Below, piece after piece: positions 21,262 through 37,550 of a stretch of 64,000 nucleotides of DNA. The position numbers and the translations under genes were made by a program. Source of the stretch: Neolentinus lepideus HHB14362 ss-1 (lineage: Eukaryota > Basidiomycota > Agaricomycetes > Gloeophyllales > Gloeophyllaceae); NCBI GenBank assembly GCA_001632425.1, contig KV425568.1, positions 116,840 to 180,839 on the forward strand, given 5' to 3'. Each line of letters starts with the position of its first letter. The first letter of the stretch is position 1. The notes beneath the pieces are model-generated. The model saw nothing but the letters and a program-made list of their open reading frames with translations. It made no database searches and was not told the DNA's origin.

Positions 21262-23975
21262 CTACAAGGCAGCGATACCGAGCCATATCCCTAGGTTATC
21301 CCATATTTTCTGCCTGTGCGCCAACCACGCCGCCTTCCTCACTTCCACGCACCCCTCGCAAAATCCAAGCCCACCAGCTCCTAGATCAATGTTCATGAGA
21401 TAGGACAGACCGCATATGGGGTCATACAGATATTTTTGAAACACAGTAGAGCCCATCCCGCCGGTTACATTCCAAGCGACGGCTTTCTCTTCTGCAGTGG
21501 GACATGAGTGTGCTGGTGAGGACGAGTCAGGACTGGGCAGCTGTTCCGACGCGGGCCCATTCAGTGTGGCTTGGGGGCATAGGAACCCTTCGGCTTTACA
21601 AGCCCGGATCCATTCGGAGAGTAGGTGCTCCCTCGCCACAAGTAGCTTGCGTAGTAGAGCTGGCGGCAGTTCGTCACTTCTGTCTTCATCATCCTCATCA
21701 TCAAATATACATACTCTTGCATTGCCTGGCCCCTGTCCGAAGAGCTTCACCTCGTCTTCGTCCTTGTCCGGTTGGGCAAATCCACCAGCCCGCAAAAGTT
21801 CATATAAAGTGCGCTTGAGGATATTGCGCAGCCCACACTCGCGAGCCACCAAGACCATTTTCGTCGCCCATTTTGTCTGCACCCCCTTCCCATATCTGGC
21901 GTTATTCCAGTTCCCATCTCCCTCTTGCGAGATGAGACCATCCAAGTCTCCACCCCACATATCTTCGATTTCAGCAAGAGCCCATTCACGGTATTTTGGG
22001 AACGAGAGATGGGTGGAGACTCGGAGAATGGAGATAAGGTCGGAGAAAGGGGGAGGATTCTTGATATACGTTCTATGAGGAAAAGATCATTACTATCCAC
22101 CTTCGACAATTGTTTCTACACATAGACTTACACGCCATCCTCCATCGCTGCTAAGACCTTCTCGAACTCCCTTGCGGTGACTTGTGAGTGGGAGACCTCG
22201 TAAACCGGACACCTATCAATCATCTCACGGTCTTCCTCTTCACTCCGCTTATCTTCTTCTTCATCCTCATCCTCGCCGCTCGCCCGATGCTGCCCGAACA
22301 TCTTTGCGAAATACGGTGACTCACTCACCAACCTTGACCGGTGCAATCTGAAGAGAATACTTTCCACTTGGATGATCACAGACCCATCCAGCTGCCAGAA
22401 TCGCGAATGCCGGTGCAGCGACTTGCTTGATCCACGGGCAGAAGAGGCCCGAGACCTCTTGCGCTTGGACTGCAACGCGGGTGGAGGCGGGCTGGCCCGC
22501 GACGAGAAGGGATCATGTGAGTCCTCAAAGGACACAGATGAGGAAGCTCCCCGCTTGCGCTTATTTGTCTGCGACTGCTGCGTCGGCCTGCAAGGGCCAT
22601 CATCCAACTCTAGTATGTCGACGTCAATGGGTTGATTGATATCCGCACCCTCGCCGACATTGAATGAAACCTTCCGAGAGGTACTCGTCCTCCTTTCGAG
22701 CTTGGAGTCCTCATGCTTAATCAGCTTCTTCCCCATATCCTTCTTCAGAATCTGGCTGGCCGAGCGAGTGTAAATCACTTGGCTAGCAGAAGGCACCTGA
22801 GATTTGAGCTGCAACTGGGAGAATGAACTAGGCTGCTTGATGCCAGCCCAAAAGTCCTCTACGCCAGGCAAATCTATGTCTGAGGACATCTCTCGTAAGG
22901 GGTACGGGTCGTCGAAGCTGTCTTCACGATTCTGCATTATACTGGCTTCAGCGGCTCTCAGTTTAGGCGAAGATAAGGGGGATAGGACGGGCATTTGGGA
23001 TGGGTGTCGGGCAGGCGACGAATTGGGAACAACTGGCGGTGTTGTATTCTCAGCGACTGCAGGTGCAGATTCCGAGTCAAGCGCGGCTGCGGGCGCGGAC
23101 GTCGCTGGTGTTTCAGCATCAGCCAACGAGCTTGAGTTAGCCTCGTCATTAGCATCTTGCACACTTTCGCGAGGGGGCATTACATCATTGTTCGGTGAGG
23201 TAGGAGTCGAATCCGCTGGAGCATCAGAAACTATGGAATCGGCTGTCTTGTGATTCGATGACTCCGTGGTCACGACTGCAGACGTTGGACTTGATCCACT
23301 AGTGCGCTTCGAATTTAAGGGAGGGTTCGAAGAGTGCGCCAGTGCGGCAATAGCGCTTGCATAGCCAGTGATAATAGTAGCAGGGATCGAAGCAGAAGTC
23401 GCGGGCTTGTTGGATGATTTCTGCGGAGTCTGTGGGACTGCGGGAGGAATCATGTCTGAGGGTTTACCGTGTCGTTTCGACTTTTTGTGGGACCTGTCTC
23501 TTTTGGTATGTGAGATAGAATCAGCCTCCGTGTTATTGGAGGCTTCAGATGGACGAGAGGCCGAGGCTGAGGTAGATGAAGATGGCGTAGCCGCCGAACT
23601 CTTCTTCTTGACTGAGCCTTCCAATTTGACCCTTGCGTCCGCTGAATGTGCAGAGGTCATTGTCGCTGGGTTTGAAGGTCCTGACTTTGAGGTCATCTGT
23701 TGGATGAAAACAACGACATCAGGTATTATGTCTCGCACCGGTTTGCTTGGTGACTTCGAAACGCCCGCGATCTCTTTCTTTTGCGGCGTACTGGCAGTTG
23801 GGCCAGCCTTGGATCTAGAGGATCGCGTAACAGGACTAGTGCATAGCGTATCAGGTGCAGAGCTCTCTGCGACCTTTTTGCTTGGAGTTTTCTTCGGCGA
23901 CTGCGAACTCCTCGTTCTCCTCTTTCGTTCCGGAGTCAGTAGCAGGTCCAGTACCTCTTCGTCTTCTTTAGCCAT
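21262..23975 (-). CDS. BTB/POZ-domain protein with long disordered N-terminus
   Basis: The first exon runs from 23975 for over 600 codons. It starts MAKEDEEVLDLLLTPERK and is dominated by Ser, Pro, Ala, Thr and basic stretches, probably disordered. At its end a BTB fold begins: FWQLDGSVIIQVESILFRLH, RSRLVSESPYFAKMF, an acidic loop, then CPVYEVSHSQVTAREFEKVL. An intron near 22107-22136 joins to YIKNPPPFSDLISILRVSTH and FPKYREWALAEIEDMWGG. The C-terminal part contains LVARECGLRNILKRTLYELL and ends in IWLGIAAL. BTB domains mediate dimerisation and often recruit cullin-3 ligases; many such proteins occur in Agaricomycetes with unknown targets. Basic clusters at the N-terminus suggest nuclear location (inference). 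Confidence 0.82.
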
Positions 23976-24286
23976 CGAGCTTCAATAACTAAGCAGAATA
24001 TATGCGCGTCAAAGACGCGCAACACTGGTCTAATAACAAGAGACACGAGCCGTAGCAAACGTAACAGAGCGCGATGTGCGACGCGAAAGGCGCCCATAAT
24101 GTGGATCCCATCAGGAAGACGGCTAATCGTCTTTGGGGGATCTTACGTCCAGAGATTAAACCTATCAAAAGCACTAGGTAGGACCGCCATAGCCCTTGAC
24201 TTAATATGTCTTATTCTCGCTTTAAAGAGGGCGTTAAGGACCGAAAAATGGGTGAAAGACGACCTTAATAAGAACCATTGAGACCT
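23976..24286. other. BTB promoter region adjoining the transposon
   Basis: About 310 bp upstream of the BTB start codon, ending at the left terminus of the transposon. No motif assigned. The insertion therefore lies very close to the presumed BTB promoter. Confidence 0.5.
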
Positions 24287-24305
24287 CATCAGCAAAATGC
24301 TGATG
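24287..24305. repeat. Left terminal inverted repeat with perfect hairpin
   Basis: catcagcaaaatgctgatg is a perfect inverted repeat with 8-nt arms and a 3-nt loop. The first 14 nt match the reverse complement of the right end. Confidence 0.7.
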
Positions 24306-24967
24306 CCCCTTTCTGAGATCTTGCGATCTTATTTGATCTTATTTTGGTCGCTAAGGCACTAAGATAGCATTAAGGAGAAGTAAGCCAAGTCTCGTCTTAT
24401 TTTGTCTTGATCAGGTCTAGCGACGTCTGATTGGCACTTACGTGGCTTAAGGTTTAGCTTAGATCGGTCTTAAGAGTGTTCTTAGACACGAGTTTAAGCA
24501 GGTTTAAGCAGGTTTAAGCAGGCTCAGACATTGCTTAAGATCGGGCAAGTCATGCAAGATCATAAGGATTAAACAGATTATAGGGACTACATGTGTTCAT
24601 AAGACGAACTTAAGAATCTGTAGACACAAGATAAGCAGCAGCAGTCGGATAAGAGACATAAGAATTAATCAAGAGGATACGCAGAGGTTAGTGAAGCACG
24701 CAGCAGTACAAGAAAGCAGACCGAGACACAAGGTGACAGCAATGAAGACAAGACAAAAGAAAGAATACCCGCGACCATGGAGGTAACAGAGACACGCTAC
24801 AGCAGACAAATGACGAGACGCCAGAGGTGAATGACATTTGGCAGACCATGTCCAAGTCGAGGACAGAGACCTGCGCCACGACAGGCCTAAGATCTCGAGA
24901 GATCCTAGAAATATGCTGAGGTGTCAGATGGCAGTAGTTGGATGGGAATGGATGAAGACCTACTGAC
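24306..24967. other. Left subterminal AT-rich region of the transposon
   Basis: Contains many short variants of cttaag, ctaagg and gtttaagcag (three tandem copies near 24490-24520). Such short subterminal repeats are commonly transposase binding sites in DNA transposons; that role is inferred. Confidence 0.5.
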
Positions 24968-27900
24968 TTATTCAGCGTCGGAGTCATCACATCCGAGCAG
25001 CGCCCTCGGATCTTCATCAGAGTCATAAGCGTTGATGACTTGGACACGTCGAGAAGCCGCGCCGGCAATATTCAATGCTGTTGAGATCAGGGGCTGAAGC
25101 TGGATCGGCTTGCGATTCACAGCACATTTCATCCAGGCCCGTGTGCTTTTCTCGTACTTGGAAGCGTTGAACTTATCCGCCTCCTTCTTGGCCATCCTGG
25201 GACCTGCCCCATTCTCCTCTGTACCAGAGTCATCCGTCTCGTCAGACTTGGGACCTCGCAAGAGAAACGTCTTCCCAGTCTTCTTTGATACTGCAGCTTC
25301 ACGGTCCTTCCACTTGGTCAGGATCCGCTCAAGCTTGTGAACATGTATCAGTAGATAAACAGTACGAATGATTGATGCAACATACTGCGCAGGCGGAGAG
25401 GGCGATGGCTCCAATCGGCAGCTTCTCCTCACCATTTTCGTCAAGAACCTCATCAATCATAAGATCCGCGCCGGACTTGAAATAGGAGTAATGATACGCA
25501 AGAGTGCCAGCCATCGAGGGTGAGCACAGGACACCACGCCATTTCTATTGTATCAGGTACTGTTAGCACTGTATCAGATGACGACAATAAACCCACCTTG
25601 TGATTGATGTGACTGGCGTCCGAGTAGACAAACCGAAAATTGGTTAAAGCATGCTCAGCGAACTTAATGCGAGCGGCATATGTCCCATACTCTCTGGCCT
25701 TGCTCTGAAAGTGCGAGTCGATGACTTGAATTGCTGCCGTGCCAAACCCACTTCTCCATTCGTAGATCTTTTGCTTAATCTATTATAGTATAAGGGTTAA
25801 CTTATCAGTAATTGAAAGGGAAGGAAAAGCGCCGACTCACCCTGGAGTAAACGGGATCTTTTGCTTGAATCATGATTGGCCCGTATTTCTTGCGAAAGAT
25901 AGAGTTGTATGCCGACTGTAGCACGGGTACAAGGTGTTGATCATCAATAACCCACGGATTTTGTCGGGTAGCCATCCAGCGGAGGACAGTGGTGGTGAAT
26001 GCCCGTCTCCACAGAATGTCTTCTCCGATACCTTTAGGAAGCTGATTGTTTTTTACCTTTCCCTTTGCGTGAATAACTGCGCCCTCGATATCCGGGTAAG
26101 ACTCGGCTTCTGAGACAGACAGGTTCTTGTCATCATCCGAGTCATCAATGGAAATCACCTCGTCAGATGCACCAGGAGGGACTTGGATGTCGTCGAAGCC
26201 CACTTCTTGCTTGACGGCAACCGTGTCAACAATCTTCTTTGAGATCTGTGGGAAAGAATCAGCACGTACAACATGATCCAGACGTCATAGCCACATATGC
26301 TTACTGCTAACTTGTCCTTTTCTCCGGCCTCCTTTCCATCCGTCTCGCGTTCAATTACACCGGCACCCATCTAACGGTAGTGTATTACATGTAGTAGTAT
26401 AAATTCTCAAAAGAACTCACCATATTTGTCGTCCGCTTCCGGGGCTTAATGGGCATGGGTGTCACAAGAACGCTGTCATGCTTGCGAAGCTTGGTCATGG
26501 AGGCATCAGAAACTCCAGCCTCTGAATCGACAATGATGATAGAATTCTACGATACAATTAGATATAGTGCGCAACCAATGACAGAGCTAGTAACTACTTA
26601 CTTGCTGCGTGAGACGAGCAACTGGCGTCTTCTCCGGAGAAGCCATTGCCGCATCCCGTTCATCAGTATCATAATTAATGAAGTAATCCATGTCGTCCAT
26701 GGGTGCTTCTGGCTCAGTGGCCAAGTTCTGATTAGACGTGGGCAATGGCGGTGGGTCGTGCAACCGCAGTGGGTCGTGCAACCGCAGTGGGTCATTCGAC
26801 TGAGGTTGCCCGAATGTATTTGTCGAGTTCACATACGCAAGCAAGTCCGGTGCACGTTGTCCAACATTTGACTCGGATGCAGACTGGAATTGCATTCGGC
26901 GGGTAGAGGCATGTGCGAGAAGAGGCGAGTTCATAGACTGCCCGGACATGGGCCATCTTTCTCTCAGCATTGCATACTTATCTTGGGCGTTCTTGCCCTT
27001 GAGGATACCCAGGGAAGTCGATGACTGATTGCGATCAGCCCTAACACGATGTTATCACATGTGAAATCAAGGTTGAGTTCTCACTCTATGACGTACCACA
27101 CTGTGTTATTGGTTGGCGTATTCTCGTCCTCAACATGTTGCCCACCAGTAACGACCCATGAGGACTGGGGCCTTGCGTATCCTGGCTTCAATGACATACT
27201 TTGGTATTCGGTTCCTCCTGGCTGGGGAGCCTGCGTGGCGATCTGTGTACGCTGCTGCTCAACAGCATCACGAAAGGAGTTTGAACGAGCTGAGTGCGTT
27301 GCCGTCTTCACCTTCTTTCGCATCTGCAACTGTAGAGCTTTTGCAGAGTACTGTGAAGCGTCTGTCTCCATTCCTGTTGTCTCTCCATCGTCCGACTGCT
27401 GTCCAGAAAGGGTGTCCATCTCTGTGTCATCAAACGTCTCCTTGCTGTTATCCTTTGAACGAACAGCTTTAATGCCCGGCTGTGGGTTGGGGATCTGTTT
27501 GCCCCTAGCCCAACTCGAAGACTGTCCAGTGGGAACAGGAGTATCTGACTGACTGGGCGCCCAGTCTGCACATTCACGGAAGTCAGCGATGGCATACGAC
27601 CGCTTGAGTGGACGTAGGGTAGGGTGATCAGCGACATCCTTGACCCGGTTAGCCCTACGCTCATTGTCCCCTCTAGCAACGTCCTCCTCCATCAGTGCCA
27701 ATTGGAGCTGCACTGCGCTCCGAGCAGCATCTGCTTCAAGCAGAGCCTGCTCCTTCACCTTGGCCGCATCCTCTTTAGCCCTCCTACTAGCTTCTTTTCG
27801 GGCCCGTCTCTCGAGCTCCTTCTCCTGTCGGATGCGGTTGGTTTCCTCATCTTTCGCCTTCTTCATCTCTGCCTTGACTCTCCTGGCCTCCGCCTCCACT

Positions 27901-28085
27901 TCCTCCTTCTGGGCCTTCTTCCTTTCCCTCTCCTGTTCCTTCTCTTGTCGCTGTAGCTCCTTCTGCCTTTTTTCTGCTGCAACCTCTTCCTTGGTACGTC
28001 GTTGTCTTCGCTGTGGCTTTTCGGTACCTGAATCCCCGTCTGCAGGCCCATGGGCAGCTTTGGTCCTCTTGCCCTTTGCCACCAT
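24968..28085 (-). CDS. Transposon-borne accessory protein, function unknown
   Basis: Starts MVAKGKRTKAAHG and runs through a long charged stretch of Lys, Glu and Arg (about residues 25-130) that reads as a coiled coil. Then come Ser/Thr/Gln-rich disordered segments over several exons, including a short repeated DPLRLH motif. Acidic patches EVISIDDSDDDKN precede a more ordered C-terminal domain: FTTTVLRWMATRQNPWVI, VYSRIKQKIYEWRSGFGTAA, KWRGVLCSPSMAGTLAYHYS, and LPIGAIALSACAVERILTKW. The gene ends in an acidic tail, LLGCDDSDAE. I recall similar ordered domains beside Plavaka transposases in other basidiomycetes but cannot name the family. It is divergent from the transposase, 247 bp away. A DNA-binding, packaging or end-bridging role is possible but not shown. 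Confidence 0.65.
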
Positions 28086-28332
28086 TATCGCGTCAAAGAT
28101 TTGAGTTAACAGCTTTAGTACTAGGGATAGTATGGTGAGAGGAATGAAGACAATGAGTATTGACGTGGCTCAAAAGAGGTTGAATTCAACCAGATGACGG
28201 CATCTGAGTCTCCGAAATCCGCCCCCCGCCACTGGCGGGCGCTAGTCCCGTCTGGTCAATTTCACTCTAAGTCCCGTTCTTCTACAGTATGCTCAGTATA
28301 TTTGTCTATAATACTGCTTCAACTTTGCTAGA
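28086..28332. promoter_or_regulatory. Bidirectional promoter of the transposon genes
   Basis: The 247 bp between the two divergent transposon genes. It contains a GC-rich block near 28217-28250 amid AT-rich sequence. No specific element identified. Confidence 0.45.
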
Positions 28333-31300
28333 ATGAGCTCTCCGCTCCGTAGCTTGTTTTCTCCAACAAGGACGGCCTCACCGAGCTTCAAATGTGCTGA
28401 ATGTGGAAAGTATTGCCGAAGTGCAGGAGGATTACAGAAGCACTTGCAGCGGAAACACCCCTACATACCTCCAGCAAATGCCGCGCATGTGCCCGCACCA
28501 GCAACCGGACTATCTACAGTATTTAATCGTCTATTTGGGTCCCCTGCAAGAGCTAAGCTCCCAAACAACAAGACACCATCCCCGAATGCGAAAGCACCAT
28601 CCCCGAATGACGACTCACCATTGCCACCCACTGACCACCATCCTAAACCTGCAGAATCATCCCCGGGCTTCACATCCTTTGACCAGCCTCTAGTATCACC
28701 AGGATACCAGGCATCTGACTCGGAGCTGCTCCGATTACCAGTGACCCCCACACATTGTGTACTTCAAGAGGATGCTGACAGTCGCAGATCACCTGCCTCG
28801 TCCTTATCTCCAATCTCCGCTGACGGCCTTGACTACATGGACAATATCTTTCACCCAAACTTCTACGACTATATTGATGTCAATCCGTTTGCTCCTATCA
28901 GCCAGCCTGAGGAACGTGCTGAAGAATCATATTCAGATGAAGATGACTTCATGAGTGAAGACAATGATTTCACAGATCACAACCAGGATGGAATAGACCA
29001 CAATTTACCTGAAAATTGTCATTCGGACGAATCAGCGAAAAATCAGAGCAAGATACGCGTAGTTTATCATCCAGAGCTAGACGGTAAGTTCCTGAAGCCC
29101 ATGTCAATTATGCTACTCTATATAACATTTATTCTAATAGGTGTGCCCTGTGATCGCAATGGACAGCCCCTGCCGGCAAATCCAGGGCAGACAAAGTCAA
29201 GCCAGACACCAGAATTTCCCTCTTCTTCAGGCTCACCGTCTTCATCCCCCTCTCTTGCCGACAATTCTTGGGCGCCGTATCCAAACAAATCAGCCTTCGA
29301 TATCGCGGACTTCCTATTTACTCAGGAGCAGATGTCCGCTGGGAAGATCGATATACTCCTGGACATTTGGGCGTCGCATGCAGTTGAGTACGGTGGGGAT
29401 GCGCCGTTTCGCAATGCTCGCGAATTATACAGGACAATCGATTCAACAACTCTCGGCGATGTAAAGTGGGAATCGTTCACTATCAAGTACCAAGGCCATC
29501 AACCTCACCACGACATTCCAGATTGGATGACGGCTGGCTATGAGGTGTGGTATCGTGACCCTCTTAAGATTGCGCGTCAGATGCTCGCGAACCCTGACTA
29601 CAATGGCGAGATCGATTACTGTGCAAAACAGGAGTTTATTAACGGCAGTCGACGTCTTAAGGACTTCATGTCTGGTGACTGGGCTTGGAGCCAATCAGTA
29701 AGTAGCTGTTTTAACCACTCCCATACACACTAAGTAACCTCTTGTGCAATTTAGAGTAAAATTGCCAAGGATCCAGAAACACATGGCTCGACATTCGTAC
29801 CTGTAATCCTCGGTAGCGACAAGACCACAGTCTCAATCGGTACCGGAGATAATGAGTATTATCCTCTCTACATGATGCTTGGTAATCATCACAATAATGT
29901 GCGCCGAGCGCATCGTAATGCAATCACAGTTATAGGGTTCTTAGCAATCCCAAAAAGTAGGTTTTATGCCCTAACTGTGAATTTATCATTATAATATTGC
30001 ATATAGCCAGCCGACGCTATAAAAATGATGTCAAGTTCCGTAAATTTCGCCGGCAGTTATTTCACGTATCATTGTCAAGAATCCTACAGAGTCTTAAGCC
30101 TGGCATGTCTACACCCGAGGTGACGCTCTGTGCAGATGGTGCATTTCGTCGTGTCGTATATGGACTTGGGCCCTACATTGCTGACTATCCGGAGCAAGCA
30201 CTTCTCGCCTGCATTGTGCAGGGCTGGTGTCCCAAGTAGGTTTACATTCATCTGCTCATCTCTTTGCTTACTAATACAGGGTTAACTCGAAGGTGCACGG
30301 CTCGTAGAGGAAAATTGGAAGGTGATGGCCCATGTATTCGACGGTGCGCTGAGCATACCGAAGCTCTAGTCCAGTGCATGGATCTCGGGACTTTATGGGA
30401 CGAGTATGGTGTAGTTGGTGACATTGTGGTGCGTATTAAAGTTTCCATTTCATTCATATTCTGTGTTATTCTTCATTTGTACGTCAAGATACTTTTAGAC
30501 TGCTTGAGTACTAATCGTGGGAACTTCTGGTTCATTGTGCGCCATCTACGACACCACTTCCCCACCTCACAAGCATGCTCGCACGATGGGCCTCTACGAC
30601 ACCACAAAGTTCACTCCAGCCACGTCACTCAGAGAATGCAGGACGGTACCAGGAGCAGTGATCACCCTGGCTCTGGCTTTGGGAAGGGTCCCCGACTTTT
30701 CTGTCCGGGGTACTCATGATCACTGTTCATCAGGTTACCAATGGCTTCTACGAGTGACCAGGATCTCTTTCTTATTCAACAATTACTCTTCCCTCTCACA
30801 TCTACGCTCGCTCTTTCTTCATTGTCCGCCACGTCTGCGGCCCTACCTACTTAAATGTCTGAAGAAACGAGCATAAGACCCTCTCGGAAGGGCAAGGAAC
30901 GTGAACAAGACCTGGCGCAGCGTATATTCGCTCTGTAACGGACGAAAGCAGCGTGCGTATATTTTCTCTCATGCGTTGATGCTAGTGGCTCTTTCCGTAT
31001 GCCGTTGCATGGCGTACAGTAGGGATGGTGTTCCTGGACGGTGGTCTAGTCCACAGTCTCGGTATAGTCATCCTGCGGTACGCCTGCACAGTATGCAGAA
31101 GGAGCCAAATATCTCGTTAACTCATACTAACGAGCCTTTTTAAAACAGTGCCATCAGGCCCAAAGAGCGATCAGAACGACTCGCACCGGCCTCTACCGTA
31201 GAGGCCTCACCAACACTCATTACAGCCCGAACGCCTATGGAAAGACGATCAGTCGAGAAAGCATCCTCATCTACGACGCGCACATCGCAATCACACACTT

Positions 31301-34300
31301 CTCCACCCCGCAAGCATGTTCCAACCTCCCCGCCTCGTGTCCTGGTCTCCGGCACCACAATGGACCGTGAAGATCTGGATTTCTCTCGCAGGTTGAAGAT
31401 CAGCCATTCCCCTCGACCATCCCCCCACGCTCACGACGCCACCCACCACACATCCTCGAAAAAGCTCTTCAACCCGAATCTGGACCCCATTCCAATGCGT
31501 CGAACCGCGGAGCCGGAGTTGATTTCCGATTCCCAGTCCAACTCCTCCTATGTCCAAGTCTCTCAGACATCTCCGCACTCCCGCGAACCTCTCGCACATC
31601 GACAGCTCTTCGATCATCGAAAGGACAATCCAGTACGCTTCGCTGTGCTCGCGCGCCCCTCTCGTCATGACGGCCGCCCCACCCCAATGCCTAAATCATA
31701 TGGCGATTACGTCTCGGCATCTTCCACCTCATCGTACGCTCATTCGGTGGCGTCTAGCTTTACTCTGTCATCCAGCACTACAGATGGCTCCTCAACTCGC
31801 TCGGCACTATTCGATCAGTGCAAGCCTTCACAAGAGTCGAGTGGCAGCAGCAACAACGCCTTTGCACAACAGTTGAAGAAGCTCTACAGAGCTATCTCTG
31901 CGCTCGAAGATCGGATAACTAAGGAAGATGGCGACGTAGTCAACGGCGAAGACAGTGTCGCACGAGATGGGCCGAGGAGGAATGGGGTCGTGCTTAAGGC
32001 TAGGAATGCACAGGAAGCAAAGGAGAAGGAAGACGAGGCAGAGCAGGAGAAATGGAGGAAGATTGTGCAGGACCACAAGGCGTGAGTCCCTTCCCTCCTC
32101 GTCTTTGCAATGCATCTCATGTGCTGGCCCAGACTGGTCGAGATGATGCACAACCGGCTCGAGATCTCGCTCGCCCCGAGCGTCCCCACCTCCCTACGCA
32201 ACATCCCGCAGAAGTACAACATCATCATCCGGCTCTGGACTCACGGCTTCCACAAGCTCCTCGAAAACCTCCGTCGTTCATCCTGGGACTCTAGCGTCGC
32301 CTTCGAGCACCTTCAAGAGTTCATCTACTATGCGTACACATTCTACACCGGCCTTCTTGAAGAGACGACACTTGATGCCCACCGTCTCAGTTGGCTCGAG
32401 GCGCTCGGGGATCTCGCGCGCTATCGCATGGTCGTCACCGATATGGCGACGAAAGCCTATTCCAAGAGCCAGCCTCAAGCATTGACTGTCGATGCGCTCT
32501 CGCAGCAGGCGGCGATCACTAGCGATACGACGCCCGCGACGAAGAGCAAGGCGAGCATAAGCGATAAGCCGGCAGCGCGGATTGACGACTCGGACGGGCC
32601 GAGTATCGGGCTGGCAGCGGCGCGCGCGATGGATATCGAGCCAGAGAAGGAGCGGTGGAGGGGGATTGCGAGGGAGTGGTACGCGACGGCGTTGGCGGAG
32701 AAGCCGGTGGAAGGGAAGTTGCATCATCATATGGGGCTTCTCTGCCGGGAAGTCGAGGCTGAAGAGCTTCGTGCCGTCTATCACTTCGTGAAAGGGTTAG
32801 TACTTTTCCTGCTACGCAAGAGACACAAACTAATGAATGATCATTGCAGCATGACGACTCTACATCCCTTCCAGACCTCGCGCGAGAATGTTCTCCCACT
32901 CTGGTCCCCCTCTGCCCAAGCAAGACGCTCGCATCCCGACGCCCGTGTCACCGATCTTTTCGTTCTCCTCCAGGGCATGCTCTTCACGAACATTCAGCTG
33001 GATGATTTCCCAAAGTCCTTGGATCGCTTCCTCGAACGACTAGATCTGGACGGCGCGGAAGAGCGCGAGTGGATCATGATGGCTGTGATCAACATCGGCA
33101 GCATCCTTGAGTACGGACGGCCTGGCGGTGTTCTTCGGAAGACGGATGTGCTCGGCCTGGGTATCGGCGCGAGCACTACGGGCGGGTCTTCAGCGGCGAA
33201 GGTGAAGCTTGCGAAGAAGCCCGAAGACGATGGCGACAGGAGGATGGACGTCGACGATGACGGTGAAGCGATGGTGACTTCGCCAGCGTTATCAGAAGCC
33301 GCTGCTAGCGTTGTCGAGGCGCCTGAGCTCCCTCCCGCGTTCAAGCTCGCGCTGCAGCTCACCTTTTCGATGCTCTCGCATGCCCTACGGAGGCCAACTC
33401 GCAAGCCGTCGGTGCTTCAGAAGCCCACTCTCAACCCTTACATCACCATCATCCTGACCTTCCTCGCGACGATCCTGCGTCACGAGTCCATTCGCATTAT
33501 TCTTGAGCGTTCAGTGCCTCGGGAGGACCTCACGGCGTTCTACACGCGATCGGTCCCTTCGACTGTAATCACTCATGAGGAGAGCGCTCGGTGGACAACG
33601 CTGACCAGCGGCTGCCGTCCCCTTCCTGAAGACTGGTGTGTCCGGGGCATGGAGTGGGTTGGCCGCAAGGTCTTCGAGTGCGGATTCTGGAATAAGGTAC
33701 CTGAGAGCGACGCCAAGCACGCCGAGCTAGAGATGCTTGAATGGCATGACATCCATGATGCTGATGGGATAATTGAGGATGAGGATGATGAGGACGGCAG
33801 CAAGAGGAAGTCAACTCCACAGTGTCAACGCTGGGTGAGGGCCGCCTGGGAGGGTGCTGCCATCGCACAGTGCATGGACGGCTTTGGCCAGGTAGACGAT
33901 GCAGCTGAGTGGACCATCGGCGGCTCCCTGTCTGTCAAGGTTCAGTGGTGGAAAGAGGAAGAGCGGTTGGAGCACGAGGAGGAAGAGAGGCGACGTCAGG
34001 GCATGCGGTGGGGCGACAACGATTCCATGGACGTCGACGATGATCAAGGTTCTAGTGACAATGACACTGACGAGGAGGACGAGGAAGACAGCGACGAAGT
34101 GAGGGAGCTCAAGGCTCGGCGCTGGTACCTCAAGAGTCTGCTGGAGTCCGCTCTGCAGTTGCCCCAGCGATGACCAGCACTGCGATCAGTGCGCAAGCCG
34201 AAGACGGCTGTGGATTCGCGTCCGTTACTCAAGGTAACTCCTGGGTATTCGGTCCTCGTCATCGATACCAACATTCTACTGTCATCCTTGTCTACGTTTC

Positions 34301-36541
34301 AATCTATGGTCGAGTCCCTCCGGTGGACGATTGTGGTTCCGCTTCCGGTCATAACGGAGCTCGATGGCCTCTCCTCGGCGTCCGATGTGCTCGAACTGAG
34401 TGGCATCGCATTGGCTGCGCTGCCTTACATCATGTCGCATATCTGATCTCATTCCACCTCATTGAAGGTCTTGATGTCGAAAGGCAACTACCTCCGATGA
34501 TGGCATTCCCTGAACCTGTACCTGTTGATGCTATGCCGATGTTCACTGTTTTGACCCCGCACTATAGCAAAAAGGTTAGCAGGCGTGAATTGTGGGTATA
34601 AGGTTCATGCTGACTCAGTTGTTTAGATTCTTTTGTTGCTACATGAGATTATCCATGAGGAGGATCAGATGATGTATGTTATGCTGCTCAAGTACCTTGA
34701 GCAGCTGCACCCGGTCGAATGGGCCAACTTCGTCAAGGATACCAAGATCTTGGCTGAGGAATGGAATGTGTATTTGATTTAGTTTGGTTCTTGTCTTCCC
34801 TTCTATCATTTCTTTTGGTTATAATATGTTTATGTCTAACTGTGACTGACATACTTTCAGCCTTTTACCAATGATTTCCCTCGTGCTGATATTCATGAGC
34901 TACTTTCTCCTGACCTCCTACATCAACTTATCAAGGGCACTTTCAAGGATCATCTAGTCGACTGGATCGGTGAATTCCTTAGTTTGCGACACGGCCCAGT
35001 ACACAGCCAGGTGGTGATGACAGAGATTGATCGACGGTATGATTGTTCAAATAGCATCATTTGGAGACTCACTGCCAACCCCAGGATTGCGGCGGCACCC
35101 CCTTTTACAGGGTTGAGAAGATTCCCTGAAGGGCGCGGGTTCAAGCAATGGACGGGTGATGACTCAAAGGCACTGATGAAGGTAATGTCCCACATTCAGT
35201 GACGTGATAGGACTTTACAACTTTGTGTGAGTTAGGTATACCTGCCCGCTGTCGATGGTCTAGTTCCCAGTGAGATAGTCCGGACCATGCGTGCATTCCT
35301 CGAGTTCTGCTACATTGCTCGACGTGATGTGCATACTCCAGAAAGCCTTGATCAACTTGAGGAAGCAGTGGAGCGTTTCCATGACTATCGTGAGGTCTTT
35401 CAGGAAGAAGGGGTTCGTGTTGAGGGTTTCTCCTTACCTCGGCAACATTCTATAAAACATTACTATGATGCTATCTGGGACTTTGGGGCACCTAACGGCC
35501 TATGCTCTTCAATTACGGAATCAAAACATATTAAAGCAGTCAAAGAGCCGTGGCGGCGCTCTAATCGGTTCCAGGCATTGGGTCAAATGCTGACAACAAA
35601 TCAGCGACTTGACAAGCTCGCTGCGAGCCGCGTTGACTTCATCAACCGTGGAATGATTGAACAACCGAGCAAGCGTGAGTTGATTTTCCATAGTCATTTT
35701 GAATAAGCCAAAAATAATGTCATGTTCATAGCCAAGCAAGCCTGTCTCCCATCCACAGATGATGATGGTGCCATTGATGATCCACGATCCCCTGGATATG
35801 TTAAACTTTCATCACGCTTCAGTACGTACTTTACTTTCACGGATAATTCAAGTAGATTTAAATTATTTCATACTAGAACGCCAGCATCATTTCAATTCTG
35901 CCGCTCTAACTTCACATCCAGATCGCCCCACATTCAACCGCCTGCTGCGCGAATTCCTTCGCAATCAAGTCAATGCACTCAATCCATCAATGTTCCTCAC
36001 CGAACTCCCGGTCTTTGATGAGCCCATTTTTATTCACTACTCCGCTGCTGCTACCTTCTACGCTCCAAGTGATCCATCTGGTATCAGGGGCATGCGCCGG
36101 GAGCATATCCGGGCGAATCCATCCTGGCGTGGAGGCGCTCCCCGCTTCGACTGTGTCTATGTCAAGCCAGAGGTATGTCATGAAGATTCACCCCATCCGC
36201 AATTTGATGTGGCAAGAGTCTTCATGTTATTTTCATTCAAATTCCATGGTCAACAATATGAGTGTGCATTGGTCCACTGGTTCAAATGGACTGATTATCA
36301 TCCTGATGAAGACACGGGGATGTGGATTGTTGACAGGGGTCATGCCGGTGACGCAAGTCGTCCTGTTTTATCCATTATTCCTATACAGCGCATACTCCGA
36401 GCTGCACATCTTATCCCAATGTTTGGTCAGACAAATGTCCCTCCCGACATCAGCGCTACAGACAGTCTGGATAGATTTCGCCTTTTTTATGTCAACAAAT
36501 ACGTCGACCATCACGCATTCGAGATTTTACATTCACCGTGA
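28333..36541 (+). CDS. Plavaka-type transposase, with a 4.4-kb intron
   Basis: Cut-and-paste transposase of the Plavaka group. It begins [18 protein letters not shown], then a C2H2 zinc finger [21 protein letters not shown] and a disordered acidic region. Characteristic blocks follow: [111 protein letters not shown] and [25 protein letters not shown] ends at 30428 and is continued only at 34861 by [15 protein letters not shown]. Then come [36 protein letters not shown] and [18 protein letters not shown], ending [13 protein letters not shown]. The split falls exactly at a GTGCGT donor and a TTTCAG acceptor, so the frame is preserved if the large intron is spliced. No premature stop was noticed in the exons, so the gene may be active. 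Confidence 0.85.
30855..34497 (+). pseudogene. Captured EST1/SMG6-like gene copy, broken, PIN domain truncated
   Basis: Resembles fungal EST1/SMG6-type proteins of nonsense-mediated decay and telomere biology. Exon 1 is [20 protein letters not shown]; the second exon is a disordered Ser/Pro-rich region. The helical EST1 core follows: [78 protein letters not shown], and [19 protein letters not shown] domain begins [17 protein letters not shown] and reaches [11 protein letters not shown]. In the same frame there is a TGA at 34171-34173, before the PIN domain, and a second TGA at 34444-34446 within it. After the second stop, in-frame resemblance continues as [16 protein letters not shown], then ends abruptly. 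Introns are retained. It cannot encode the whole protein. Confidence 0.8.
34498..34768 (+). pseudogene. Captured fragment of a 1,3-beta-glucan synthase (FKS) gene
   Basis: Two exons with the junction kept: [20 protein letters not shown] then SKK at 34574, a short intron (gttagc...tttag, 34575-34626), and [32 protein letters not shown] and [11 protein letters not shown]. This matches the start of the catalytic domain of fungal FKS cell-wall glucan synthases, normally about 1,700-1,900 residues. Only about 75 residues are present. Substitutions in otherwise invariant stretches (for example LHEIIHEED for LREIIREED) suggest decay. It abuts the EST1-like fragment with no spacer. Confidence 0.82.
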
Positions 36542-36789
36542 ACTACTAGTGTAGTCAACTTGAAGTATATATTGCTTACTAGCATGTCTTTACTACTTAG
36601 CACACCGGATGTATTCCTTAGTAACTTTCAATGTACTTAGGACACTTACTGTTGTCTTGTTTATCTTACCACGGCTTGGATAATCTTATATCTTATCTAT
36701 TGCCGGACTTTCGGGATTAGCTGATCTTAGCCTACTTATTGTTACTTAGTGCCTGCGCTAAGACAAAAAAAGACACAAAAGTCAATTTG
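36542..36789. other. Right subterminal AT-rich region of the transposon
   Basis: Contains repeated tactta, cttag and ctaag motifs in the opposite sense to those of the left subterminal region. No gene. Confidence 0.5.
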
Positions 36790-36803
36790 GCATTTTGCTG
36801 ATG
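36790..36803. repeat. Right terminal inverted repeat
   Basis: gcattttgctgatg is the reverse complement of 24287-24300. Unlike the left end it does not form its own perfect hairpin. Confidence 0.7.
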
Positions 36804-36955
36804 CTGTTGAGCCCAGACCAATTCCCCTCATAGCCCACGTGGCTTTCACGCGTAACCCACGTGGCTAGACTAACCATTACCGTCACACGGCTTGACCGAG
36901 CAGGACACCACCGACGAGCACTACTTACACGGCCTCGACACTCTAATTTAACCCA

Positions 36956-37550
36956 ATGGTGAGTTACACTGCTCTGCGTGATCGCTGCTCGGGATTGGAA
37001 GGAAATGAAGGGCAGAACTGGCGGCTGTTGGGATGGATGTGGATGTTGCGGCTTGGATGTATCAGGTGCAATTGGATTCGACTGACACTGTCTTCAATAG
37101 GCCACTGCAGAACTCGCCGCGACCTACGCCGCTCTCATCCTTGCCGACGATGGCATCGAGATCACTGTGCGTTGCCAAAAAATCCTTCCTTATTCATGCC
37201 CATCTCACCCAAACACACGCAGTCTGACAAAATCATCGCATTAACGTCTGCGGCTGATGTTGAACTCGAGCCCATCTGGGCGACCCTCCTCGCCCGGGCT
37301 TTGGAGGGCAAGAATGTAAAGGACATACTATCAAATGTCGGCGCTGGTGGTGCCGGCCCCGCTGTCGGGGCAGCACCTGCTGCTGGCGCTGCTGCTGCTG
37401 GAGGCGCTGCTGCTGCTGAGGAGAAGGCCGAGGAGAAGGAGGAGGAGAAGGAGGAGTCAGACGACGACATGGTTCGTCCAGTTATTGATGTTGTCTTGAG
37501 TGACGTTGTACTGAGAAGGTGTCTCGCAGGGCTTCGGTCTGTTCGATTAA
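36956..37550 (+). CDS. RPP1: 60S acidic ribosomal protein P1
   Basis: Stalk protein of the cytosolic large subunit that recruits elongation factors. The first exon is just the ATG (36956-36958), followed by an intron ending ttcaatag. The rest reads [20 protein letters not shown], then [36 protein letters not shown], an Ala/Gly hinge and an acidic block. The last exon, after an intron ending tcgcag, encodes GFGLFD and TAA at 37548-37550. The universal C-terminus ESDDDMGFGLFD is complete after splicing. The transposon's right end lies about 150 bp upstream, inside its presumed promoter. Confidence 0.93.

What the first reader, a model, noticed from the sequence alone, without database searches (positions are those of the whole stretch)
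24287..36803. Plavaka-type transposon that has swallowed pieces of two host genes inside a transposase intron
The transposase frame stops at GDIV (30428) and resumes with PFTND (34861) at a clean donor and acceptor, so the element may still make transposase. The 4.4 kb between holds an EST1/SMG6-like gene copy and, directly abutting it, a two-exon fragment of an FKS glucan synthase gene. Two unrelated genes fused inside one element, with introns kept, is the pattern of gene capture (as in Pack-type elements and Helitrons). I do not know of this being described for Plavaka elements. Intron placement would let cargo build up without harming the transposase.
Basis: partly seen in the sequence, partly recalled or inferred. 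Interest (0 to 1): 0.92.

Follow-up and report, generated by a model that had tools for sequence, protein, structure and literature searches.

The report
Transposon intron collects host gene fragments
In a wood-rotting mushroom, a family of jumping genes has repeatedly copied pieces of the fungus's own genes into one intron of its transposase gene, so it can carry stolen DNA while its jumping enzyme seems to stay intact.

Summary
Confirmed and extended. Window 24287-36803 is a complete PlavakaB transposon (termini CATCA..TGATG, CT duplication, Pfam Plavaka) in a genome identified as Neolentinus lepideus. Eight of its nine transposase introns are 48-57 bp; the fifth is 4,432 bp and holds 3.7 kb of an SMG6/EST1 gene joined to an FKS piece, each with a separate source locus (96%, 90%). 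Of ten elements examined (window included), five have this intron enlarged (2.5-6.7 kb): C29 holds pieces of four genes, C64 a kelch gene, C10 and C33 a cyclin-like gene; the other five have 51-98 bp. The seven pieces oriented all lie in transposase sense. Cargo-bearing copies moved recently (99.3-100% identical, matching 2-bp duplications). Between C29 and C64 the transposase is under purifying selection on both sides of the intron (dN/dS 0.04, 0.20). CpG loss in cargo shows direction host to element. The window's SMG6 copy is a broken three-tract mosaic (2.6, 0.5, 9.5%); its most diverged tract apparently came from a diverged working SMG6, the rest from the resident gene. Best reading: an intron used as cargo bay, filled by repair-type DNA copying. 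Splicing, repair route and outside donor are inferred.

The parts
24285..24286 (.). CT, left copy of the 2-bp target site duplication (right copy 36804-36805)
   Evidence: Read from the flanks; C29 has CG on both sides
24287..36803 (.). PlavakaB transposon, 12,517 bp, termini CATCAGCAAAATGC and GCATTTTGCTGATG
   Evidence: definition of PlavakaB termini in PMC12730594
24971..28085 (-). Companion gene(s) on the opposite strand, also present in relatives; one typed stretch has a weak match to DUF6532 (below Pfam's cut-off)
28333..30428 (+). Transposase exons 1-5: 28333-29083, 29141-29697, 29755-29956, 30007-30235, 30293-30428 (exon 1 has a C2H2-like stretch, by eye)
   Evidence: Pfam Plavaka PF18759 5.7e-134 on exons 2-5 joined to part of the later exons
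30429..34860 (+). Intron 5 of the transposase, 4,432 bp; the other eight introns are 48-57 bp by the exon coordinates
30429..30782 (+). 5' end of intron 5, no source gene found; the first part resembles the C29 intron start
30783..31819 (+). SMG6/EST1 cargo, tract 1 (27 of 1,037 sites differ from the C7 gene); begins 72 bp before the start codon; stop at 30936
31820..33383 (+). SMG6/EST1 cargo, tract 2 (8 of 1,564 sites differ)
33384..34494 (+). SMG6/EST1 cargo, tract 3 (105 of 1,111 sites differ); stops at 34171 and 34444; ends within the PIN domain
34492..34760 (+). FKS cargo, exon-intron-exon, 89.6% to C8:232332-232600; overlaps the SMG6 match by 3 bp
34861..36541 (+). Transposase exons 6-10: 34861-35036, 35085-35181, 35236-35674, 35732-35821, 35877-36541 (stop included)

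Best explanation
This is a PlavakaB transposon with an intact transposase frame whose intron 5 serves as a cargo bay. Shown by sequence: pieces of host genes, with introns, have been copied (sources remain) into this one intron in several related elements; cargo-bearing copies have transposed; cargo decays without constraint; the transposase stays constrained on both sides of the intron in two cargo-bearing relatives. Inferred: breaks in the element are repaired by DNA synthesis that strays onto host genes and then rejoins; only insertions that leave the transposase readable survive, so pieces collect in an intron; the long intron is spliced out. Also inferred: the window's SMG6 piece was copied from SMG6 genes more than once, which made its three-tract mosaic.
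For: Ends and 2-bp duplication; Pfam Plavaka; open exons and standard splice sites. Sources elsewhere in the same genome for six genes: C7 SMG6 and C8 FKS, C1 kelch (36), C15 cyclin-like (37, 40, 41), C11 gene A and C10 gene B (38); map. Intron 5: five long, five 51-98 bp of ten elements. Seven of seven oriented pieces in sense, two-sided p 0.016, or 0.03 if the two SMG6 pieces count once. Recent movement with cargo. C29 v C64 dN/dS 0.037 before and 0.199 after the intron, no stops. CpG loss in cargo exceeds the reverse in 12 of 13 pieces compared and falls equally on replacement and silent sites. SMG6 change points.
Against: No RNA evidence. For the window copy itself selection after capture cannot be measured; it is single. 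C83, with a 98-bp intron, sits in the same weakly supported group as window, C29 and C64, so a long intron needs two changes on the tree and loss is not excluded. The C10 copy has a stop in the transposase. Age order along the intron is not regular. Why intron 5 and not the others is unexplained. Stretches of the introns (window 30429-30782, C29 261549-262282, much of C33) have no source found.
Confidence: 0.8

Rival explanations
1. The long intron is not spliced. Cargo-bearing elements are dead for transposase and were moved by transposase from short-intron relatives.
For: Introns of 2.5-6.7 kb are far longer than the 48-57 bp of the other introns in this gene. C83, with a 98-bp intron, has an open frame through most exons. 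The C10 copy has a stop.
Against: C29 and C64 differ by dS 0.16-0.21 yet keep dN/dS 0.04 and 0.20 on the two sides, and share the kelch cargo. Window, C29 and C64 frames are open with standard splice sites. The Plavaka Pfam domain, residues 89-410 of the typed protein, spans the joint at residue 374.
Confidence: 0.15
2. The SMG6 mosaic arose by one capture from the resident line, after which the resident gene changed in its 3' half (for example by crossing with a diverged lineage), or by uneven methylation along the cargo.
For: A diverged donor and a changed resident give the same silent differences; 4 replacement changes in tract 3 are on the resident side.
Against: CpG loss, a clock inside the cargo, is 39 of 109 in the 3' part but 10 of 228 in the 5' part (p 2e-13), so the cargo parts differ in age themselves unless methylation is patchy.
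Confidence: 0.25
3. The captured genes are useful cargo: the element keeps them because their products (for example an SMG6 fragment) help it.
For: All seven oriented pieces lie in sense; the window cargo is an annotated gene model, P0002; SMG6 sequence occurs in two elements.
Against: Stops in window SMG6 (3) and in kelch of C29 (3) and C64 (2). CpG changes hit replacement and silent sites alike (p 0.71 and 1.0). Pieces differ between elements.
Confidence: 0.05
4. The region is a native gene cut by the element, or an assembly join.
For: Several related copies end at contig edges (C4, C27, C64, C118, C130, C157).
Against: Separate loci for both genes. Window element and C29 lie whole within contigs of 518 and 372 kb with matching duplications. 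The same intron is enlarged at five loci.
Confidence: 0.02

Closest known systems
PlavakaB transposons, some carrying TET/JBP genes (Kojima 2025, PMC12730594; abstract, passages and section 4.1 seen)
   Same: Termini CATCA..TGATG, 2-bp duplication, Plavaka transposase; a gene gained by the element.
   Different: There an open dioxygenase gene thought to help the element; here broken pieces of unrelated host genes, in an intron of the transposase.
Tgm-Express1 of soybean, CACTA superfamily (PMC1947982; passages seen)
   Same: Several unrelated host gene fragments with introns inside one TIR element; their introns and exons can be spliced.
   Different: There the element lies in an intron of a host gene; the word transposase does not occur in that paper's main text. 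Here the fragments lie between exons of the element's own intact transposase.
CACTA elements of Chenopodium with captured fragments (PMC8978399; passages seen)
   Same: Captured fragments in CACTA-like elements that hold transposase sequence; preferred places for capture noted.
   Different: There fragments lay in the 5' region outside the coding sequence; here in intron 5, several at a time.
Pack-TYPE / Pack-CACTA elements (PMC8903248 listing and start of abstract; PMC13317346 passages)
   Same: Host DNA copied between terminal repeats and moved.
   Different: Pack-TYPE elements are non-autonomous; the proposed route (two tandem elements fusing) would not place DNA between intact transposase exons.
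Helitrons of Pleurotus ostreatus with captured genes (PMC4289320; passages seen)
   Same: Gene capture by a DNA transposon in a mushroom.
   Different: Rolling-circle elements; captured genes lie downstream of the helicase and are of unknown origin; here terminal repeats, duplications and source loci are present.

Membership tests
PlavakaB transposon | Transposase with the Plavaka domain | tested here: met
   PF18759, 5.7e-134
PlavakaB transposon | Termini 5'-CATCA..TGATG-3' | tested here: met
   against the definition in PMC12730594
PlavakaB transposon | 2 or 3 bp target site duplication | tested here: met
   CT at the window element, CG at C29, both ends on one contig
[quoted passage not shown]
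   Catalytic residues were not mapped
CACTA/EnSpm proper | Termini CAC.. (CACTA) | tested here: not met
   Ends are CATCA; Plavaka is a relative of EnSpm by PMC12730594
Pack-TYPE element | Non-autonomous, transposase missing | tested here: not met
   Transposase frame present and open
Pack-TYPE element | Copies of host gene fragments between terminal repeats | tested here: met
Helitron | No terminal inverted repeats or target duplication (recalled) | tested here: not met
   Both are present
Gene capture (host DNA copied into a transposon) | Separate source locus remains in the genome | tested here: met
   C7, C8, C1, C15, C11, C10
Gene capture (host DNA copied into a transposon) | Direction host to element | tested here: met
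   CpG loss on the cargo side in 12 of 13 pieces compared; the exception is a 96-bp C33 piece
Gene capture (host DNA copied into a transposon) | Cargo moves with the element | tested here: met
   C64 and C130 identical over 3,544 bp with different right flanks, C29 and C4 99.4% over 4,968 bp including SMG6 cargo. Not shown for the window copy, the only one of its kind found

The most novel reading that the evidence does not exclude
The transposase intron is a self-renewing cargo bay: once a host gene fragment is inside, its homology draws further copying from that gene, even in another host lineage. The window's SMG6 tract 3 was copied from a diverged working SMG6 of another lineage, the element crossed into this one, and the 5' part was overwritten from the resident gene. 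The cargo would then be a record of the element's hosts.
Probability: 0.3. Interest if true: 0.87.

Novelty: new variant of a known kind. Interest (0 to 1): 0.72.

Why it matters
Gene capture is best known from elements that have lost their transposase, which makes the route hard to study. Here capture recurs at a known place, between two exons of a transposase that seems to stay working, with source genes at hand and pieces of several ages in one intron. That makes the capture mechanism, its orientation bias and its rate testable in a fungus. It also suggests that a mushroom gene whose other introns are about 55 bp can tolerate an intron of 4-7 kb. If the SMG6 mosaic is read rightly, captured fragments can date and trace the movement of transposons between hosts.

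Tried and rejected
A transposase-like cutting site inside intron 5: terminal-repeat-like motifs were sought in ten introns with four element ends on both strands. Four of 80 comparisons (C83 once, C97 twice, C129 once) had at most 3 of 200 shuffles as good; about 1.6 would be expected by chance, the tests are not independent, and the branch-point motif CTGAY (recalled) accounts for part of it. Dropped as weak.

An older SMG6 relic: window 30530-30782 has a 30-bp match (4 of 300 shuffles as good); the stretch before the C29 acceptor matches the PIN region (1 of 300); in C64 9 of 300, and the best match there lies elsewhere in the gene. A first try with lenient gap costs was uninformative. So a single SMG6 capture older than the split of window and C29 elements is not shown.

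Strict age layering from donor to acceptor: in the window CpG loss rises 10/228, 39/109, 17/25, but the middle SMG6 tract is the least diverged, and in C29 gene B is more diverged than kelch downstream of it. Not claimed.

A first dN/dS of 0.146 for SMG6 tract 3 (split there at 33380) mixes two processes and was replaced by the split into CpG and non-CpG changes.

Two motif counts over the relatives were wrong or loose and were settled. Of the 31 listed proteins without the exact motif, 15 show the same joint with a variant letter and 16 were not resolved. Pfam gave no family for gene A, the cyclin-like piece or two of three companion stretches; the cyclin name rests on my reading of a 553-residue frame, the FKS name on reading the C8 sequence.

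Literature searches: Plavaka (11 papers, 10 listed), CACTA with gene capture, Pack-CACTA (54), capture in basidiomycetes (55), Tpn1/Tgm (69), Neolentinus with transposable elements (70), gap repair (81). None of the listed titles or abstract starts described fragments gathered in a transposase intron. Most subscription papers are missing from the library, so this is no proof of absence.

Changes: identities are now the BLAST values, the C83/C10 counts and motif counts were recounted, and the FKS locus is said to be read only in part.
Full report
HOST. The window is C18:116840-180839 of a 33.8 Mb genome in 168 contigs; C18 has 518,438 bp. A protein search lists a protein identical in part to the window cargo, on a contig of exactly 518,438 bp, as NEOLEDRAFT_1155924 of Neolentinus lepideus HHB14362 ss-1 (P0002), and another protein of this strain on a contig of 995,929 bp, the length of C3 (P0122). 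The host is therefore taken to be this fungus.

THE ELEMENT. The termini are CATCAGCAAAATGC at 24287 and GCATTTTGCTGATG ending at 36803, with CT on both sides. This fits PlavakaB (termini CATCA..TGATG, 2 or 3 bp duplications) as described by Kojima. The transposase matches PF18759 at 5.7e-134. Exons: 28333-29083, 29141-29697, 29755-29956, 30007-30235, 30293-30428, 34861-35036, 35085-35181, 35236-35674, 35732-35821, 35877-36541. Exons 2-10 were aligned to relatives and are open (862 codons before the stop); exon 1 is open by translation. By these coordinates eight introns are 48-57 bp and intron 5 is 4,432 bp. Of 120 listed relatives, 89 hold the motif PFxNxF, and in 87 it directly follows the preceding exon's end; P0206 has 53 residues between and P0229 does not fit.

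THE CARGO OF THE WINDOW. Window 30783-34494 matches C7:413928-417645 at 96%, and 34492-34760 matches C8:232332-232600 at 90%. The C7 locus gives an open SMG6/EST1 frame of 1,209 residues with PIN_4 and EST1_DNA_bind domains, between genes that look by eye like a dehydrogenase and a sulphate permease. Its closest listed relatives from other species are from Heliocybe sulcata (83%) and Gloeophyllum trabeum (76%). The SMG6 piece starts 72 bp before the start codon and ends in the PIN domain; the FKS piece is exon, intron, exon (by eye). The copy of SMG6 has stops at 30936, 34171 and 34444. The two matches overlap by 3 bp at the joint.

RELATIVES. DNA searches of the own genome gave related elements; only the best candidates are scored there, so the family may be larger. 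Intron 5 was read in ten elements: window 4,432 bp, C29 about 6.7 kb, C64 about 2.8 kb, C10 2,540 bp, C33 3,091 bp; C83 98, C97 59, C3 64, C42 64, C129 51 bp. In C29 the intron holds, in order, gene A (source C11, 98.3%), gene B (source at C10:313 kb, 85%), kelch (source C1, 94%; Pfam kelch PF24681 1.5e-52) and SMG6 (67.7% and 75.2% to C7). C64 holds kelch (92%). The C10 element holds a cyclin-like piece, partly doubled (source C15, 85-86%), and C33 shorter parts of the same source (82-85%). C33 also has a 384-bp stretch resembling C22 and C102 at 73-75%, not followed up. Seven pieces could be oriented from their frames (window SMG6 and FKS; C29 A, B, kelch, SMG6; C10 cyclin-like) and all read in transposase sense: two-sided p 0.016, or 0.03 if the two SMG6 pieces count once. 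The searches with the rest of the window element (24100-30430 and 34768-37000) listed related elements and a short repeat at the left flank, no further source gene that I could recognise.

CARGO MOVES. C64 and C130 are identical over 3,544 bp but have different right flanks; left ends with 99.9% identity over 4,957 bp lie on C157 and C118. C157 overlaps C64 by 241 identical bases, and the outer ends read TT and TT; C118 and C130 read TG and TG. C4 is 99.4% identical to C29 over 4,968 bp, SMG6 cargo included, with another right flank; C27, 99.3% to C29 over 3,977 bp, is its likely left end (TG and TG). Except for C157/C64 the pairing across contig gaps rests on identity and duplication.

TRANSPOSASE UNDER SELECTION. 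C29 against C64: before intron 5, 281 codons, dS 0.206, dN 0.008, ratio 0.037; after it, 487 codons, dS 0.164, dN 0.033, ratio 0.199; no stops inside. Window against C29: 0.062 and 0.075 with dS 2.2 and 1.7, near saturation. C29 and C64 share the kelch cargo, so at least part of this constraint acted with a long intron present. For the window copy only the open frame can be shown. C10 has a stop in its transposase; C33, C97, C42 and C129 also show stops or poor frames in some exons as mapped. In a tree of ten transposases C10 and C33 pair (100/100) and window, C29, C64 and C83 group (93/99, drawn open); a long intron needs two changes.

DIRECTION AND AGE. Host CpGs lost in cargo, with the reverse in brackets: window SMG6 5' part 10/228 (5/225), 3' part 39/109 (11/83), FKS 17/25 (1/7); C29 gene A 8/88 (1/82), gene B 9/20 (4/15), kelch 61/156 (5/100), SMG6 18/41 (8/24) and 4/16 (1/8); C64 kelch 64/188 (8/130); C10 50/139 (9/97) and 16/35 (3/22); C33 13/36 (2/24) and 2/8 (3/8), the last being the one exception. 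CpG changes fall on replacement and silent sites alike: kelch of C29 33/171 and 23/119 (p 1.0), SMG6 3' part 23/140 and 15/78 (p 0.71). So the cargo evolves without constraint.

THE SMG6 MOSAIC. A change point at 33383/33384 has log-likelihood ratio 63 (highest of 100 permutations 6.9). A second at 31819 has 10.22 (none of 200 permutations as high, highest 10.03), so it is less firm. Divergence is 27/1037, 8/1564 and 105/1111. In the 3' part the non-CpG changes are 10 replacement to 45 silent, against 22:23 in C29 kelch (p 0.001) and 17:25 in C64 kelch (p 0.02). If this tract had drifted freely since being copied from the resident line, replacement changes should be far more common. The simplest reading is a donor that was a working SMG6 already diverged from the resident one, then CpG decay, and a 5' part copied later from the resident gene. 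Against Heliocybe and Gloeophyllum proteins, replacement changes in the 3' part are 30 on the cargo side, 4 on the resident side, 3 unclear; in the 5' part 11, 2 and 1.

MECHANISM. Shown: DNA-level copying with introns, repeated, into one intron, in one orientation, sources kept. Inferred: break repair with strayed synthesis (the gap-repair route is mentioned in PMC8978399, passages seen; details recalled), and survival only of events that leave the transposase readable. Sense pieces lacking gene ends would let transcription run through; this is a proposal. Why intron 5 and not the eight others is unexplained.

KNOWN AND NEW. Capture by CACTA-type elements is known in plants (PMC1947982, PMC8978399, PMC13317346, passages), gene gain by PlavakaB in fungi (PMC12730594), and capture by mushroom Helitrons (PMC4289320, passages). 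New, as far as eight literature searches show, are fragments gathered in one transposase intron of elements that keep the transposase, in more than one lineage, with a mosaic that points to repeated copying of the same gene.

Noticed in passing
window 31348-34450 (P0002): The SMG6 cargo is itself an annotated gene model (NEOLEDRAFT_1155924, 979 residues) that starts inside the gene and passes the stop at 34171; it may mislead gene counts.
   Followed up: partly
window 24102-24296: A repeat at and just outside the left end of the element occurs at 15 or more other places in the genome at 70-81% identity; perhaps a small element into whose edge the Plavaka copy went.
   Followed up: no
window 24287-24305: The left end of this copy reads as a near-perfect hairpin (CATCAGCA AAA TGCTGATG); the left ends of C29, C27, C157 and C118 do not.
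   Followed up: partly
C33:204717-205244 and C22:290149-290532, C102:35282-35666: The C33 cyclin-like cargo is interrupted by a 384-bp stretch resembling two other places (73-75%), perhaps a further captured piece or a repeat.
   Followed up: no
C129:17172-17342 and 22712-23173: More stretches resembling the cyclin-like source lie on the contig of the short-intron element C129, outside its transposase match; a paralogue or another cargo.
   Followed up: no
P0206 (Grifola frondosa), P0155 (Athelia sp. TMB): One listed Plavaka protein has 53 extra residues exactly at the intron 5 joint, and one carries a dynamin domain by its precomputed Pfam entry: leads for similar events in other species.
   Followed up: partly
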